From: a virus
Virus record (IMG/VR): IMGVR_UViG_3300009082_000057
Span: 1-25,396 of that record
DNA: 25,396 bases
Reading direction: 5' to 3' (one strand)
Below are positions 3,140 through 9,838 of the stretch, piece by piece. Below the pieces are notes generated by a model. The model had not been told where the DNA came from, did no database searches, and was given only the letters and a program-made list of their open reading frames with translations. The first letter of the stretch is position 1. Each line of letters starts with the position of its first letter. The translations under genes and the position numbers were made by a program.

Positions 3140-3462
3140 AAGTTAAAATAATTAGTTGTAGAGAGCCTAATCTTTGGTATTATAATTATATCAATGCTAT
3201 CTTTGATGTCAAGAAACATAGCCAAGAACTATATATCATCATAAGCCCAGATAAAAGGTTTAATAATCTTATTATTTCAAGGTCTGATGTCGAGCTATCC
3301 TCGGAGCCAAAAGAAATAAAAGGATATTCAAAAATGATAGATAAAGTAAATACCGTTCATAGAGATATTAAAGCTCTGGGCGTTTCCGTGGATAGTGAAA
3401 TTCTTCAGATCATAAATAAGATTAACTTAGAAAAGAAAAACAAATTAAAGGAATTGATATGA
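3136..3462 (+). CDS. Hypothetical early protein, 108 aa
   Basis: ATG overlaps the preceding TGA (ATGA), with GGAG upstream. The product is MKVKIISCREPNLWYYNYINAIF..., containing ELYIIISPDKRFNNLIIS and a C-terminal helix ILQIINKINLEKKNKLKELI. It looks like a small alpha/beta protein with no TM and no recognisable catalytic motif. Coupling to the ThyX-like gene suggests shared expression. Function unknown. Confidence 0.7.
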   Translation: MKVKIISCREPNLWYYNYINAIFDVKKHSQELYIIISPDKRFNNLIISRSDVELSSEPKEIKGYSKMIDKVNTVHRDIKALGVSVDSEILQIINKINLEKKNKLKELI

Positions 3463-3623
3463 AAATAGAAAATAACGAATATTATAAAAAAGCCTTAGTA
3501 GAAGTTGAAGAGCTGATTGATGATAATCCTAAAAAGAATTCAAGGGATTATAAAAAAATGGGAATACTGTTAAAAGAAATATCTGATTATGAAAGTAAAA
3601 ATTATAAGATAGGGGATGAATAA
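3459..3623 (+). CDS. Helical protein resembling the N-terminus of HigA-type antitoxins, 54 aa
   Basis: ATGA overlap with the upstream stop, with AAAGG upstream. The product reads NEYYKKALVEVEELIDDNP ... YKKMGILLKEISDYESKNYKI. This is the two-helix pattern (EYxxALxxIExL ... LLxLIxxYExKHYPI) that precedes the HTH in HigA-like antitoxins and some phage regulators. Here it stands alone and the HTH is absent. The family link is my recollection of the pattern, not a search result. No toxin gene is visible beside it. Confidence 0.6.
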   Translation: MKIENNEYYKKALVEVEELIDDNPKKNSRDYKKMGILLKEISDYESKNYKIGDE

Positions 3624-3624
3624 T

Positions 3625-3834
3625 ATGTCATATTATAACGAATGTCAAAGATTACAAGAAGAAATAAGTAACGATTTATTACAATCCTTGTCAATTGGTA
3701 TTAAAGGGATAGAGAAATCATTGAACATATATTATTTATCTGATTATTTAGAACAAGAAAAAATTGAAGAGCTTAACGAAATGAAAGAGAGATTAGAATG
3801 TATATTAAATAAATATTTTGGTAATAAGAGATAG
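3625..3834 (+). CDS. Hypothetical helical protein, 69 aa
   Basis: An in-frame ATG lies 9 nt upstream, but AGGGGAT at 3611-3617 is best spaced for 3625 (MSYYNECQRLQEEI). The sequence is rich in E, L, K and I with heptad-like spacing, so a helical bundle or short coiled coil is likely. It has no Cys pairs or TM. Its stop at 3832-3834 is followed by a 109-nt gap, so it probably ends this small operon segment. Confidence 0.65.
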   Translation: MSYYNECQRLQEEISNDLLQSLSIGIKGIEKSLNIYYLSDYLEQEKIEELNEMKERLECILNKYFGNKR

Positions 3835-3879
3835 TTATAATGAAAAATTGTTATTATTTCGTTATGATTATAATTATAT

Positions 3880-3928
3880 GTCGAGAATATCTAATTATTT
3901 CGACTTAAAAAAGTAACCTTAAAGTTAC
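3880..3928. promoter_or_regulatory. Two inverted repeats in the 3835-3943 gap
   Basis: GTCGA (3880-3884) pairs with TCGAC (3900-3904), extended by a G·U and an A-U pair. A second repeat, GTAAC-CTTAAA-GTTAC, spans 3913-3928 and is flanked by six A on each side. On the minus strand the latter would read as a weak terminator (5-bp stem plus T6); on the plus strand it lacks a T run. The pair could be operator sites or an mRNA leader structure for the peptidase genes. No good -35/-10 pair is evident in the gap. Confidence 0.3.
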
Positions 3929-3943
3929 AAAAAAGGGGATAAA

Positions 3944-4054
3944 ATGCAAATAGAATTTAAAGAAAAAGATTTACTGCCTAAAATATCTTTATACAACCAA
4001 TTCATTATTGATTACAGGGAGGCGGCGGAATATGTCAATAAAAACAGGCTTTAA
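3944..4054 (+). CDS. Micro-ORF overlapping the metallopeptidase start, 36 aa
   Basis: ATG 3944 lies a few bases after AGGGGAT. The product is MQIEFKEKDLLPKISLYNQF followed by a short helix ending VNKNRL. Its REAA codons (AGG GAG GCG GCG) contain the Shine-Dalgarno of the next gene, and its last 23 nt overlap that gene in another frame. This suggests translational coupling. It is real only if expressed; the good ribosome binding site is the main support. Confidence 0.45.
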   Translation: MQIEFKEKDLLPKISLYNQFIIDYREAAEYVNKNRL

Positions 4055-4346
4055 GATACCAAAAAGTTTTTATATCTTTAATCATAAAATCAATGTAGAG
4101 ATATGCGATAAAATACTTGACGAAAGAGACCGAGTTGGTGAAGCGGATTTTAGACAAAATAAAATAAGGTTAGTAAATAAACAAAAACATAATATACCGG
4201 ACAGTCAACAAGCACAAACTTTTTTCCATGAGTTACTACATCATTGCTTTAATCAGCTTAACGAAGAAGAATTAAACAGTAACGAAAAACTAATTGACAA
4301 TATGGCTGGGGTTTTAGCACAAGCCTTTGAAACAATGGAGTATTAA
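4032..4346 (+). CDS. Small phage zinc metallopeptidase-like protein (HELLHH), 104 aa
   Basis: The GGGAGG at 4017-4022 favours ATG 4032 (MSIKTGFKIPKSF) over an in-frame ATG at 4008. Residues 66-71 are HELLHH, the HExxH zinc site in a helix (TFFHELLHHCF). A downstream acidic residue in NEKLIDNMAG (E85 or D89) is a possible third ligand. This arrangement is typical of short ImmA/SprT-like peptidases found in phage early regions. ImmA-type enzymes cleave repressors in some elements, but no repressor is visible here, so the substrate is unknown. Confidence 0.75.
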   Translation: MSIKTGFKIPKSFYIFNHKINVEICDKILDERDRVGEADFRQNKIRLVNKQKHNIPDSQQAQTFFHELLHHCFNQLNEEELNSNEKLIDNMAGVLAQAFETMEY

Positions 4347-4611: not shown

Positions 4612-4839
4612 ATGACAACAGGCCAAGAAATATACGATCAAATAATCAAAGAGCTTGATAAACAAAAAATCAAGCGTAAAGACGCTGCGTATAAAGTAGC
4701 AAAAAGTGAGTCCGGTTACAGTATTGATATGCATAGAATGAGGCTGTACAACCAGACCACATTGAAGACGCTTATATCTTTCGCAAACTCAATTAATAAA
4801 GAGTTGTTAGTAACTTTCGTTGATAGGGAACAAGAATGA
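4612..4839 (+). CDS. Small HTH-like early protein, 75 aa
   Basis: ATG 4612 follows GGGGG and is the first gene after promoter P1. The sequence has a helical N-terminus (TGQEIYDQIIKELDKQKIKR), a basic centre (RKDAAYKVAKSES) and a C-terminal pattern TLKTLISFANSINKELLVTF. That last pattern resembles the end of XRE-type HTH antitoxins/regulators (TLxxLxxxAxALxxxLxIxF). A DNA-binding or regulatory role is plausible but not proven. The gene overlaps the next by ATGA (4836). Confidence 0.6.
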   Translation: MTTGQEIYDQIIKELDKQKIKRKDAAYKVAKSESGYSIDMHRMRLYNQTTLKTLISFANSINKELLVTFVDREQE

Positions 4840-5204
4840 AAGAAGAAGCGTACATTCAATATCAAGTAGTTAATGTTCTTTCGTTATATGCATCAAGAAT
4901 GAACTTCGTTTTCTTCAGCGTGCCTAACGAGGGCACACTAATGGCGTCGGCAGGAAAAGACTTATACAAAGTTATAAACCATTTGAAAAAACTCGGAATG
5001 ACTCCGGGGGTATCTGATCTGATTATAATCAAAGATGGTAAAACTCACTGCTTAGAGATTAAATCAAAGACAGGGTCATTATCAGAAAATCAAAGTATTT
5101 TTGCCTCTAATGCTGTTGCTGCGGGAGCGTTATATAATTACTGTAACTCATTTCTTGAAGTGATGGAGATACTTAAAAAATGGGGGATTATACCATGCAA
5201 CTAA
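4836..5204 (+). CDS. VRR-NUC domain nuclease
   Basis: 122 residues, the usual size of stand-alone phage VRR-NUC proteins. The catalytic PD-(D/E)xK core is visible: G58-V-S-D61-LIII, then E74-I-K76 in THCLEIKSKTG, then Q86 in SLSENQ. N-terminal QYQVVNVLSLYA and PNEG are also typical. The family comprises structure-specific nucleases (flap or Holliday-type junctions). It lies directly upstream of the helicase and overlaps it by 10 nt, as often seen in phage replication modules. Confidence 0.9.
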   Translation: MKEEAYIQYQVVNVLSLYASRMNFVFFSVPNEGTLMASAGKDLYKVINHLKKLGMTPGVSDLIIIKDGKTHCLEIKSKTGSLSENQSIFASNAVAAGALYNYCNSFLEVMEILKKWGIIPCN

Positions 5205-7564
5205 GAGAATATCAGAATGAAGCAAGGTTTCAACTTAACACTCTAATTAACGCAAAACGACATCCAGTATTCGTATGTCCAACCGGTGGCGGTAAAACAA
5301 AGACCGCAACTGTCATAATAGAGGATCAAATCAAATTAAAAAAACGAATATGGGTGTTGACTCCGCAAGATGAAATATTCCGACAATTCCTGAAAGAATT
5401 AAACGAATATGGATTAAACGCCGGATACATCAATCAAGAGGGCATAAAAGGCAAGAATAGGGGCGTTTATGTTTGTATGCCTCTTACAGTTGTTAATATG
5501 CTGCATTTGATACCAGAGAGCCTATATCCTGACATTATCATTACTGATGAATGTTTACATGAAGATACAATGATAAGCACTCCGTTCGGACTAAAGAAAC
5601 TAAAACATTTAGAAATAGGAGATGTGGTTTTAACTCCATCGGGAACAGCTAAAATAAAAAATAAATGGACAACACGGAAAGAGGCTTTTATTTTTGGTAC
5701 GCTCAAGGGCAATCTTGTATCTTCTAATAATCATTTAATTCAGAGTAATGGAATTGTTAATGAAATTAAAAATTGTGAAAATATTGATTTATCAGATACT
5801 CATGATTATAAACAAAAAGAAAATGACATAGAAGATAATATTTATGGGTGGTATTTAGCCGATGGAACTTTTGACAACGGCAATCTCAAGTTTGCTTTTA
5901 GAAAAAAGGAAAAGATTGATTATTTTCTAACGCTTGAGAACAAAGGATTTTTTAAGCATTTTGTAAACAAAAGAGGCGACTGGGTTTTTAGTTTTAAAGA
6001 CCGACAATATAAAAATGAATTTATTAAGAAATATAATATTGTTAAAGAAAAAACAATCAATGAGGATGTTTATAAATCTTGCAGTATTTCTTTTATTCGT
6101 GGTTTTTTAAGCGGTGATGGATGGCGAACTGACCGGAGGATATGTATAGATCAAGCACATTATCATTTTGTATTACTTGTTAGAAATATGCTGAATTATT
6201 ACGGCATACACCCTAATATTGACAGGCACACCCCTAAAAACACAAAACATTCCAAAAAGCATAGAATGTCTATTTATGGAGAAGATGTCAATATTTATAA
6301 TAATATTATAGGATGGGATATTGATTTAAAAAACATTGAACATAAAAAAGCAACTCTAAAAAGAAAATCTACAAACATAACAGATACTACCTTTTATGAT
6401 GTATGTAATTTGATTGACATAGAATTAGACGACAACGATAAATTATTTTTTGCTAATGGTTTTATTGTACATAATTGTCATCACTCCGCTGCTAATTCAT
6501 GGGAAACTATTTATAATTTCTTCCCGGGTACTGTAAGAATGGGACTTACTGCAACCCCAAAAAGAACTGATAACAAAGGACTTGATCATATTTACACCGA
6601 TATTGTACAGACGACAACAACAAAAGAGCTAATTGACAGAGACTTCCTTTCAAAACCGATGGTGATAGTACCGGAGCAGTATAATCTTGAAGTTAAAATC
6701 AATAACGGTGATTATGATGTTAAGGCCCAAGCTGACCAATTAGGAGATATAAGAATAATCGGAGATGTAATCAAAAATTACGAAACGGTATTCTCCGGCA
6801 TGCCGTGCTTAGTTGCTTGCAGCACATTTGAACACGCTGCAATGATGACTGAAGAGTTCAGAAACGCCGGTTGGCAATGGGATCATATACATTCTAATCT
6901 TCATTACAAGGAACGAAAAAGAATGTTAAGGCAAATAGCAAACAGAGAGTTAAACGGACTTTGTACTGTCGGTATCGGTATTGAGGGGCTTGACATCGGA
7001 GGACTACACGGTTTGATTTGGTTACGGCGTACATTATCCCTTACGATTTATTTACAGTTTATCGGCAGGGTATTAAGAAAAGCAGAGGGCAAAGAATACG
7101 GAATTATTCTTGATCCTGTCGGCAACACATTTATTCACGGCTTTCCTGAATTAAGTAGGAAATGGACATTGAAAGGGAGTGATCTGAAAGACAATGATAA
7201 TGAAGAGTTTGAAGATCTGAAAATGAAACAATGCGGATCATGCGGAGTAATGAACAATCTTGAGAATATTGTTTGTTATTTCTGTGGAAGTGATCTGACT
7301 TCATCTGCAATAGGAAAGGTTCGTAGGTTTCCGTCAATTGTTGACGGTAAATTAGTTGTTGTTACTAATGATGGACAGGTTGATGAAATACAAAGCTATA
7401 CGGATAACTTGAAGAAACAGCAGGAAGTTAAAATCGAAGAGAAGAAAAAGAAAGATGAAGAGTTATTAGTGTTATCTGATAATAGCAAGATGAACATTAT
7501 CAAGGACAATTTATTTAATAATAAGAGAAAAATGTTTACCGAAACAATAAGGGGGTTTATGTGA
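5195..7564 (+). CDS. SF2 DNA helicase with intein in the DECH box
   Basis: GGGGGA at 5182-5187 points to ATG 5195 (MQLREYQNEA) rather than ATG 5180. The spliced extein would be ~481 residues. Motif I is PTGGGKT (residues 29-35). Motif II is split as TDE-[intein]-CHH, giving DECHH after splicing. Motif III is GLTATP, and motif VI is QFIGRVLRKAEGK. A C-terminal zinc knuckle pair, CGSCG ... CYFCG, is followed by a charged tail. This fits the phage SF2/ResIII-like helicases found beside VRR-NUC genes. Unspliced protein would lack a contiguous ATPase site, so activity should depend on splicing. The role is unwinding or annealing in phage replication/recombination. Confidence 0.92.
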   Translation: MQLREYQNEARFQLNTLINAKRHPVFVCPTGGGKTKTATVIIEDQIKLKKRIWVLTPQDEIFRQFLKELNEYGLNAGYINQEGIKGKNRGVYVCMPLTVVNMLHLIPESLYPDIIITDECLHEDTMISTPFGLKKLKHLEIGDVVLTPSGTAKIKNKWTTRKEAFIFGTLKGNLVSSNNHLIQSNGIVNEIKNCENIDLSDTHDYKQKENDIEDNIYGWYLADGTFDNGNLKFAFRKKEKIDYFLTLENKGFFKHFVNKRGDWVFSFKDRQYKNEFIKKYNIVKEKTINEDVYKSCSISFIRGFLSGDGWRTDRRICIDQAHYHFVLLVRNMLNYYGIHPNIDRHTPKNTKHSKKHRMSIYGEDVNIYNNIIGWDIDLKNIEHKKATLKRKSTNITDTTFYDVCNLIDIELDDNDKLFFANGFIVHNCHHSAANSWETIYNFFPGTVRMGLTATPKRTDNKGLDHIYTDIVQTTTTKELIDRDFLSKPMVIVPEQYNLEVKINNGDYDVKAQADQLGDIRIIGDVIKNYETVFSGMPCLVACSTFEHAAMMTEEFRNAGWQWDHIHSNLHYKERKRMLRQIANRELNGLCTVGIGIEGLDIGGLHGLIWLRRTLSLTIYLQFIGRVLRKAEGKEYGIILDPVGNTFIHGFPELSRKWTLKGSDLKDNDNEEFEDLKMKQCGSCGVMNNLENIVCYFCGSDLTSSAIGKVRRFPSIVDGKLVVVTNDGQVDEIQSYTDNLKKQQEVKIEEKKKKDEELLVLSDNSKMNIIKDNLFNNKRKMFTETIRGFM
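5552..6475 (+). mobile_element. Intein with LAGLIDADG homing endonuclease, 308 aa
   Basis: In-frame insertion between GAA (E of DE) and TGT (C of CHH). Block A begins Cys1 with CLHEDTMISTPFG and IGDVVLT. Block B is LVSSNNHLI, with Ser58 and His61 in place of TxxH. LAGLIDADG motifs are GWYLADG (about residue 99-105) and IRGFLSGDG (182-190), giving two DG acidic residues. Block F is FYDV ... DNDKLFFANGF, and block G ends VHN with +1 Cys. All splicing residues are present, so the intein should be active. The homing domain also looks intact. The segment appears more AT-rich than the flanking helicase, consistent with a separate origin. Confidence 0.93.
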
Positions 7565-8680: not shown

Positions 8681-9838
8681 ATGGTAAATTATTGGTTCAT
8701 TGACGGAGACTTCTACAAAGAGCGTTCTAAAAGAATCGGGGCTTCAGATGTTCCAGCGTTAATATCTGATCCTGAAAATCCAACAGAGTCGCTGTCCGGT
8801 TATGGCAGAACGCCAATTACAGTATGGCTTGAAAAGACAGGTAAGAAAGACAGGGAGGCGGCGGGATTGCCTGCTGAAATCGGTCATCACATGGAGAATA
8901 AAGCTCTTGAAATATTCATCAGAGGCGTTTTTGATGTTGCTGTCTCAAAAGAATTCATAAGAAACAAAATACTATATGAATGTCTTAACGATACAGAAAG
9001 ATCGCCTGTTATTGAATTCCAGCACAAACTAATCAAGCATAACACTCAATATTACGATGATGTTAGAATATGTCATCCTGACGCTGTGTATGTCGGCGGC
9101 ATGAGCGGTAAGAAAAGGGCATTTGGACTTAACATCGATTTATCAAAACCTTTCCTTATTGAAGCCAAGAGTGCAACTCTATGGAGCGCAAAAAGACCCG
9201 CAGGAAGTATGGTGAAAGGCTATGATTTCGATCTTAAGACATGGCAAGGGATACCGTTAAAGCATTACATGCAGATACAATATCAGCTTGACTTATTTCA
9301 AATCGACACTTGTTATTTGCCTCTTCTTTGTAATACGAGCGAATTCTATGTCTGGGAAATCAAAGCAAACAAAAAACATCAAGAGAAAATACGAGATATT
9401 GTCTATGAAGTTTCGGATTGTATTAACAGTAACACGCCGCCTAAAGACCTTGCAATATGTCTTAATGACATCAAGAGCTTATATCCTGAAATCAAAGACG
9501 ACTACACAATAATAAGCGGAGAGGAAAAGTCTCATGCTCTTGAAATAGCAAAGACATACAAAGAAGCTGAAAGGCAAGAAAAGAAGTGGAAAGCAAAAAA
9601 GGAAGAAGCTCTTGATAGTATGTCTGTTATCTTGAAAGATAACAAAGAGATACGAGACGATACAGAGAAAATCGCAAGCTGGATCACACGGAAAGGCAGT
9701 GAGAGAGTATTAGGCTTGAAAGAACTAAAGGAAAGAGATGATAAGGCGTATTCTTATCTGAAAAGGAAAGGGCTAATAACACAATCGGACGATAGTCGGT
9801 TTGTTAAAATATATTATAATGAGGAGGAATGTGTATGA
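8681..9838 (+). CDS. YqaJ-type viral exonuclease
   Basis: AGGGGGG precedes ATG 8681. Hallmarks of the lambda-exonuclease-like YqaJ family: RIGASDVPALI near residue 20, GHHMENKALEIF with E72, HPDAVY with D134, LIEAK with E161 and K163 (the D...ExK site), and YMQIQYQLDLF near 200. At 385 aa it is longer than minimal YqaJ; the last ~110 residues are a charged helical region of unknown role. It would resect dsDNA 5' to 3' and hand ssDNA to the adjoining RecT protein. It overlaps that gene by ATGA. Confidence 0.93.
   Translation: MVNYWFIDGDFYKERSKRIGASDVPALISDPENPTESLSGYGRTPITVWLEKTGKKDREAAGLPAEIGHHMENKALEIFIRGVFDVAVSKEFIRNKILYECLNDTERSPVIEFQHKLIKHNTQYYDDVRICHPDAVYVGGMSGKKRAFGLNIDLSKPFLIEAKSATLWSAKRPAGSMVKGYDFDLKTWQGIPLKHYMQIQYQLDLFQIDTCYLPLLCNTSEFYVWEIKANKKHQEKIRDIVYEVSDCINSNTPPKDLAICLNDIKSLYPEIKDDYTIISGEEKSHALEIAKTYKEAERQEKKWKAKKEEALDSMSVILKDNKEIRDDTEKIASWITRKGSERVLGLKELKERDDKAYSYLKRKGLITQSDDSRFVKIYYNEEECV

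What the first reader, a model, noticed from the sequence alone, without database searches (positions are those of the whole stretch)
5552..6475. LAGLIDADG intein exactly inside the helicase DECH (Walker B) box
The insertion lies between E and C of DECH, so the ATPase centre is assembled only after splicing; the helicase cysteine is also the +1 nucleophile of the intein. All terminal residues (Cys1, penultimate His, Asn, +1 Cys) are present, but block B reads SxxH instead of TxxH. Both LAGLIDADG motifs keep the acidic residue. Inteins in conserved catalytic motifs are known, and this one may act as a switch delaying helicase activity.
Basis: partly seen in the sequence, partly recalled or inferred. 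Interest (0 to 1): 0.6.

Follow-up and report, generated by a model that had tools for sequence, protein, structure and literature searches.

The report
Self-splicing intein splitting phage helicase motif
A phage DNA helicase carries an ordinary self-removing, self-spreading protein insert (an intein with a LAGLIDADG DNA-cutting domain) exactly in its ATP-burning motif; inserts at this very point are already known in other phages, but the relatives found at this one site are unusually varied and may show how split inteins arise.

Summary
Homologues confirm the site: 82 align straight across it, and a 51%-identical syntenic one reads DECHH. The element has Cys1, block B S58-N-N-H61, both LAGLIDADG acids (D104, D189), His-Asn and a native +1 Cys.

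It is not new in kind: inteins at this exact point are already annotated in Bacillus phages. No sequence evidence supports a regulatory switch; the simplest reading is a homing intein lodged where imprecise loss would kill the helicase.

The extra result lies in relatives. This one site holds five states: empty; mini-intein (Lb338-1); in-frame endonuclease (window, Bacillus phages, Lbab1); a contiguous intein with a LAGLIDADG gene nested out of frame (FoX3, and L098, a syntenic relative of the window); and split inteins with a related gene between the halves (AN_ECEAS, Abuela, L111), always in the same relative frame. This suggests, but does not prove, a route from nested gene to split intein.

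The parts
5195..5551 (+). N-extein of the SF2 helicase (119 aa, ends ...IITDE)
   Evidence: PF04851 ResIII 7e-18; alignment to inteinless homologues
5282..5299 (+). Walker A motif TGGGKT of the helicase, uninterrupted
   Evidence: read from the sequence; invariant positions in alignment A1
5552..6475 (+). intein, 308 aa, Cys1 to Asn308
5723..5734 (+). block B S58-N-N-H61 (SxxH for TxxH)
   Evidence: sequence position; alignment with same-site inteins
5843..5866 (+). first LAGLIDADG motif YGWYLADG with D104
6092..6121 (+). second LAGLIDADG motif FIRGFLSGDG with D189
   Evidence: PF14528 match at residues 178-254
6410..6475 (+). blocks F and G, LIDIELDDNDKLFFANGFIVHN; K297 in place of the block-F His; H307-N308
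   Evidence: TIGR01443; alignment
6476..7564 (+). C-extein with stop; +1 Cys codon 6476-6478 completes DECHH; motif VI (IGRVLR) and a four-Cys zinc-ribbon-like tail
   Evidence: PF00271 Helicase_C 2.7e-9; homologue alignments
4836..5204 (+). neighbour: VRR-NUC-like nuclease (4e-4, just below the Pfam cut-off); upstream in the same order in L006
7828..8325 (+). neighbour: single-strand DNA-binding protein
   Evidence: PF00436 4.5e-31
8681..9838 (+). neighbour: RecE/YqaJ-like exonuclease, also present in L006 and L098
   Evidence: phrog_434 4.7e-27

Best explanation
The 308-aa segment is a class-1-type intein with an in-frame LAGLIDADG homing endonuclease, sitting between E and C of motif II of a phage RadD-like SF2 helicase. 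The precursor is translated whole; Cys1 starts an N-S acyl shift, the helicase's own Cys (+1) takes over the chain, Asn308 cyclises with help from His307, and the joined 481-aa helicase with a complete DECHH motif is released. The freed intein's endonuclease is predicted to cut intein-free alleles at the same sequence in co-infecting phages, so the element spreads by homing; a catalytic motif is a site where the target is conserved and imprecise loss is lethal to the gene. Shown here: the exact boundaries, an uninterrupted frame, empty alleles in relatives, splicing and endonuclease motifs, recurrent inteins at the same point in unrelated phages. Inferred: that it splices, that the endonuclease cuts, that the precursor lacks ATPase activity.
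For: Exact in-frame insert with intein termini; LAGLIDADG_3 and intein C-terminal profiles above cut-off; gp41-1 intein similarity at both ends; 82 homologues without the insert, and the nearest clade (L006, L121, L122, L125, L129) with native DEC at the site; same-point inteins in FoX3, BSP15, Lbab1, Lb338-1, L098 and split ones in AN_ECEAS, Abuela, L111; FoX2 is an exact empty-site version of FoX3, 13 base differences in 1425, which shows this site gains or loses inteins cleanly; helicase parts keep Walker A and motif VI, so the extein looks functional.
Against: No splicing data. The whole-Hint Pfam model PF14890 does not reach E 0.001 and Hint_2 is below its cut-off. Block-F His is replaced by Lys with one extra residue nearby. 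No close relative of the intein was found, so selection on it could not be measured. The lower G+C of the intein (28.8% against 37%) is weak evidence of recent arrival, since 11.6% of equal-length stretches of the window are as low.
Confidence: 0.9

Rival explanations
1. The intein is a regulatory switch: splicing is conditional and delays helicase activity until some cue in infection.
For: It interrupts the ATPase centre; K297 and Ser58 could make splicing slow; conditional splicing is documented for the M. smegmatis DnaB intein (PMC6195587).
Against: No sequence feature points to a cue; close relatives of the helicase function without an intein; distribution over phages is patchy as expected of a homing element.
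Confidence: 0.08
2. The element has decayed: it no longer splices (or splices poorly) and the helicase is being lost in this phage.
For: Missing block-F His, PF14890 not reached.
Against: All chemically central residues and the long open frame are intact; both endonuclease acids kept; helicase motifs intact.
Confidence: 0.05
3. It is a non-splicing insertion with a hidden out-of-frame endonuclease, like the ShiLan element, or carries a nested gene like FoX3 and L098.
For: L098, a syntenic relative of this phage, has a nested gene at the same point; ShiLan precedent (PMC11855218).
Against: In the window the longest other-frame open stretch in the insert is 59 codons; the endonuclease is in frame and splicing termini are present.
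Confidence: 0.01

Closest known systems
Same-site intein of Bacillus phage helicases (BSP15, phiNIT1, SIOphi and others; already annotated 'intein containing DNA helicase' in some)
   Same: Exact insertion point DE|C...HN|CHH, in-frame LAGLIDADG_3 endonuclease, Ser in block B
   Different: Only about 22% identical; helicase belongs to another subfamily; BSP15 has a second intein in Walker A; block-F His present
Same-site intein of Xanthomonas phage FoX3 and of L098
   Same: Same point in related helicases; L098 shares gene order with the window phage
   Different: Their LAGLIDADG_2 endonuclease is a separate ORF nested out of frame
gp41-1 intein (PDB 6QAZ, 6RIZ)
   Same: Similar N-terminal and C-terminal splicing blocks (4.7e-5)
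   Different: gp41-1 as solved has no endonuclease domain; has the block-F His; different host protein
TerL1-e intein of mycobacteriophage terminases
   Same: Intein in a Walker B motif of a phage ATPase (PMC5050341)
   Different: Terminase, not helicase; not compared by sequence here
ShiLan element (PMC11855218)
   Same: Precedent for an out-of-frame endonuclease with the host frame kept open (relevant to FoX3 and L098, not to the window)
   Different: HNH type and no splicing domain; the window's endonuclease is in frame

Membership tests
Intein (Hint-type protein-splicing element, class 1) | In-frame insert absent from homologues, at a precise point | tested here: met
Intein (Hint-type protein-splicing element, class 1) | Nucleophile at position 1 and C/S/T at +1 | tested here: met
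   C1 and +1 C, the latter native in relatives
Intein (Hint-type protein-splicing element, class 1) | Block B TxxH | tested here: met
   S58-N-N-H61; the His is kept, Thr is Ser as in BSP15 and Lbab1
Intein (Hint-type protein-splicing element, class 1) | Block F Asp and His | tested here: inconclusive
   D289 present, His replaced by K297; common but, from general knowledge, not an absolute requirement
Intein (Hint-type protein-splicing element, class 1) | Penultimate His and terminal Asn | tested here: met
   H307-N308; TIGR01443 18.2 bits, cut-off 15.6, in the precursor
Intein (Hint-type protein-splicing element, class 1) | Whole splicing-domain profile (PF14890) | tested here: inconclusive
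   not reached in the window, though reached by the same-site inteins of BSP15, FoX3 and L098
Intein (Hint-type protein-splicing element, class 1) | Splices | not testable with these tools
   needs expression
LAGLIDADG homing endonuclease | Domain profile and two acidic LAGLIDADG motifs | tested here: met
   PF14528 38.7 bits, cut-off 22.5; D104 and D189
LAGLIDADG homing endonuclease | Cuts the intein-free allele | not testable with these tools
   needs a cleavage assay
SF2 helicase, RadD-like (extein) | Walker A, motif II, motif VI and both helicase domains | tested here: met
   ResIII, Helicase_C, best NCBIfam model RadD but far below its equivalog cut-off, phrog_16 1.7e-71
Intein with an endonuclease gene nested out of frame (as FoX3, L098) | Long ORF in another frame inside the intein | tested here: not met
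   longest other-frame stretch 59 codons

The most novel reading that the evidence does not exclude
The motif II site of phage SF2 helicases records a path to split inteins: an intein's LAGLIDADG gene came to lie out of frame inside a still contiguous intein (FoX3, L098), and in other lineages the now unused intein frame acquired stops, leaving a trans-splicing split intein with the endonuclease gene between and overlapping the two halves (AN_ECEAS, Pectobacterium phages, L111). The window carries the conventional in-frame state at the same site.
Probability: 0.4. Interest if true: 0.65.

Novelty: new member of a known kind. Interest (0 to 1): 0.42.

Why it matters
By itself the window adds one more homing intein in a catalytic ATPase motif. 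Its value is the site: five states (empty, mini, in-frame endonuclease, out-of-frame nested endonuclease, split) occur at one codon junction in phage helicases. That would let the question of how bifunctional, mini and split inteins turn into each other be tested on natural alleles, and the split pairs may add natural trans-splicing inteins for protein engineering.

Tried and rejected
Single-sequence AlphaFold model of the intein: pLDDT 33, not used. Searches for close relatives of the intein in viral contigs, phages and plasmids: none close. Whole-window megablast against phages: no match. First genome-contig scan: nothing; the second gave only distant helicases, no host assignment. G+C as evidence of recent acquisition: rejected as weak, because accessory genes of the window are equally AT-rich. 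Nested out-of-frame gene in the window intein: looked for, absent. KLEP7 RNA-ligase intein checked as a possible nested case: its LAGLIDADG is in frame. Dassa 2009 'Fractured genes' and the 2025 preprint on actinobacteriophage inteins with non-canonical architecture are not held, so priority for the nested arrangement could not be judged.

Full report
OBSERVATION. The window is an IMG/VR viral contig. ORF 5195-7564 encodes a 789-aa precursor. Residues 120-427 form an insert (5552-6475, 308 aa) that begins with Cys after ...IITDE and ends with His-Asn before CHHSAANSW. Joining the flanks gives a 481-aa SF2 helicase with Walker A TGGGKT, motif II DECHH and motif VI IGRVLR.

WHY THE SITE IS REAL. 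The nearest homologue, L006, is 51% identical over its whole length, has the same neighbours (VRR-NUC upstream, RecE/YqaJ-like exonuclease downstream) and reads ITDECHHSAA with nothing between E and C. In the first homologue set 82 helicases align across the point without an insert; the residue after DE is Ala in 62 and Cys in 15 (the 18 Cys tallied by the script include three intein-bearing loci). In the window's own clade it is Cys in L006, L121, L122, L123, L125, L129, but Ala, Met or Thr in L119, L124, L126, L127, L128, L131. So the +1 Cys is a native residue of this clade, the intein needs it, and the helicase itself does not strictly need Cys there.

THE INTEIN. Profiles: LAGLIDADG_3 1.2e-9 above cut-off; Hint_2 0.003 below cut-off; TIGR01443 intein C-terminus above cut-off in the precursor; gp41-1 intein chain 4.7e-5 with matches at both ends. 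Residues: C1; block B S58-N-N-H61; LAGLIDADG acids D104 and D189; block F D289; K297 where all 8 inteins compared have His; H307, N308; +1 Cys. The block-F His loss was not noticed and is the more unusual departure. The Hint parts of the window intein are equally far (24-31% identity) from every other same-site intein, so it is a separate deep branch.

HOW IT WORKS. Class-1 splicing is the most likely mechanism, followed by homing of the free intein's endonuclease into empty alleles. Steps shown: frame, boundaries, motifs, empty alleles, recurrence at the site. Steps inferred: splicing, cleavage, inactivity of the precursor. A switch role is possible for any intein in a catalytic motif and conditional splicing is documented for the M. 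smegmatis DnaB intein (PMC6195587), but nothing in this sequence supports it.

RECURRENCE AT ONE SITE. The same junction DE|C...HN|C carries: (a) in-frame LAGLIDADG_3 inteins in the window, in 18 Bacillus phage records and in Lactobacillus phage Lbab1, some annotated 'intein containing DNA helicase'; BSP15 has a second intein in Walker A (GGK|T); (b) a mini-intein of 144 aa in Lactobacillus phage Lb338-1; (c) contiguous inteins whose middle, read in frame, is meaningless, while a LAGLIDADG ORF lies out of frame inside: Xanthomonas phage FoX3 (L001 intein 3349-4290, nested ORF 3417-4214) and L098 (intein 4801-6015, nested ORF 5004-6011, PF03161 1.7e-21). The two nested proteins are related (38.7% identity, 2e-27) and the intein frames reach PF14890's cut-off. 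The intein frame across the nested gene is open more than expected: 0.6% of synonymous shuffles for FoX3, none of 20,000 for L098. (d) Split arrangements: N-half ORF, related LAGLIDADG ORF overlapping both ends, C-half ORF, in Escherichia phage AN_ECEAS (L106), Pectobacterium phage Abuela (L142, with four close sister phages found by the same endonuclease) and L111. In all five loci inspected the endonuclease is in the same frame relative to the halves. (e) Empty: most homologues, including FoX2, which matches FoX3 minus the intein at all but 13 of 1425 bases, one of them two bases after the site.

READING OF THE SERIES. A common origin of (c) and (d) is plausible: same site, same endonuclease family, same relative frame. 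In (c) the splicing frame must stay open to make the helicase; in (d) it has stops and the C-half starts anew. Whether (c) gave rise to (d), or the reverse, is not settled. Precedents: Dassa et al. 2009 ('Fractured genes', known here by title and citation only) for split inteins with an endonuclease gene between; [quoted passage not shown] That paper cites a 2025 preprint on actinobacteriophage inteins with 'non-canonical architecture', which was not readable here and may already describe nested cases.

VERDICT. The finding is correct and ordinary in kind: a new, divergent member of a known class at an already occupied site. It earns moderate interest because of what the site shows across phages.

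Noticed in passing
L098 4801-6015 (IMGVR_UViG_3300025122_006649): Close syntenic relative of the window phage; same-site contiguous intein of 405 aa with a 336-codon LAGLIDADG_2 ORF (5004-6011) nested out of frame; intein frame open in 0 of 20,000 synonymous shuffles.
   Followed up: partly
L001 3349-4290 (Xanthomonas phage FoX3, MT161383): Same-site intein of 314 aa with a related LAGLIDADG ORF (3417-4214) nested in the same relative frame; FoX2 (L107) is its exact empty allele.
   Followed up: partly
L106 2273-5425 (AN_ECEAS), L142 1776-4991 (Pectobacterium phage Abuela), L111 2123-5323: Helicase split at the same motif II junction into N-half and C-half ORFs with intein termini, with a LAGLIDADG ORF overlapping both; looks like unannotated natural split inteins.
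   Followed up: partly
L144 1508-3688 (Lactobacillus phage Lb338-1): Mini-intein of 144 aa without endonuclease at the same helicase junction.
   Followed up: yes
L003 709-4884 (Bacillus phage BSP15): One helicase with two inteins, one in Walker A (GGK|T) and one in motif II, both with in-frame LAGLIDADG.
   Followed up: partly
L143 1757-3880 (Pseudaeromonas phage KLEP7): RNA-ligase intein with an in-frame endonuclease related to the nested FoX3 one, suggesting that this endonuclease family moves between in-frame and out-of-frame states.
   Followed up: partly
L108 1944-4177 (Bacteroides phage PhiCrAssBcn18): Replicative DNA helicase annotated in two pieces around a LAGLIDADG-like ORF; intron or split intein not determined.
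   Followed up: no
1676-2056 and 2049-2477: Two adjacent ORFs in the window share the start MFNKEFWTEIKEKNPLAFEEF, probably a tandem duplication of a small gene of unknown function.
   Followed up: no
NC_055837 (RefSeq copy of FoX3): The intein-bearing helicase region is labelled 'head morphogenesis' in this record, unlike the GenBank copy; likely an annotation slip.
   Followed up: no
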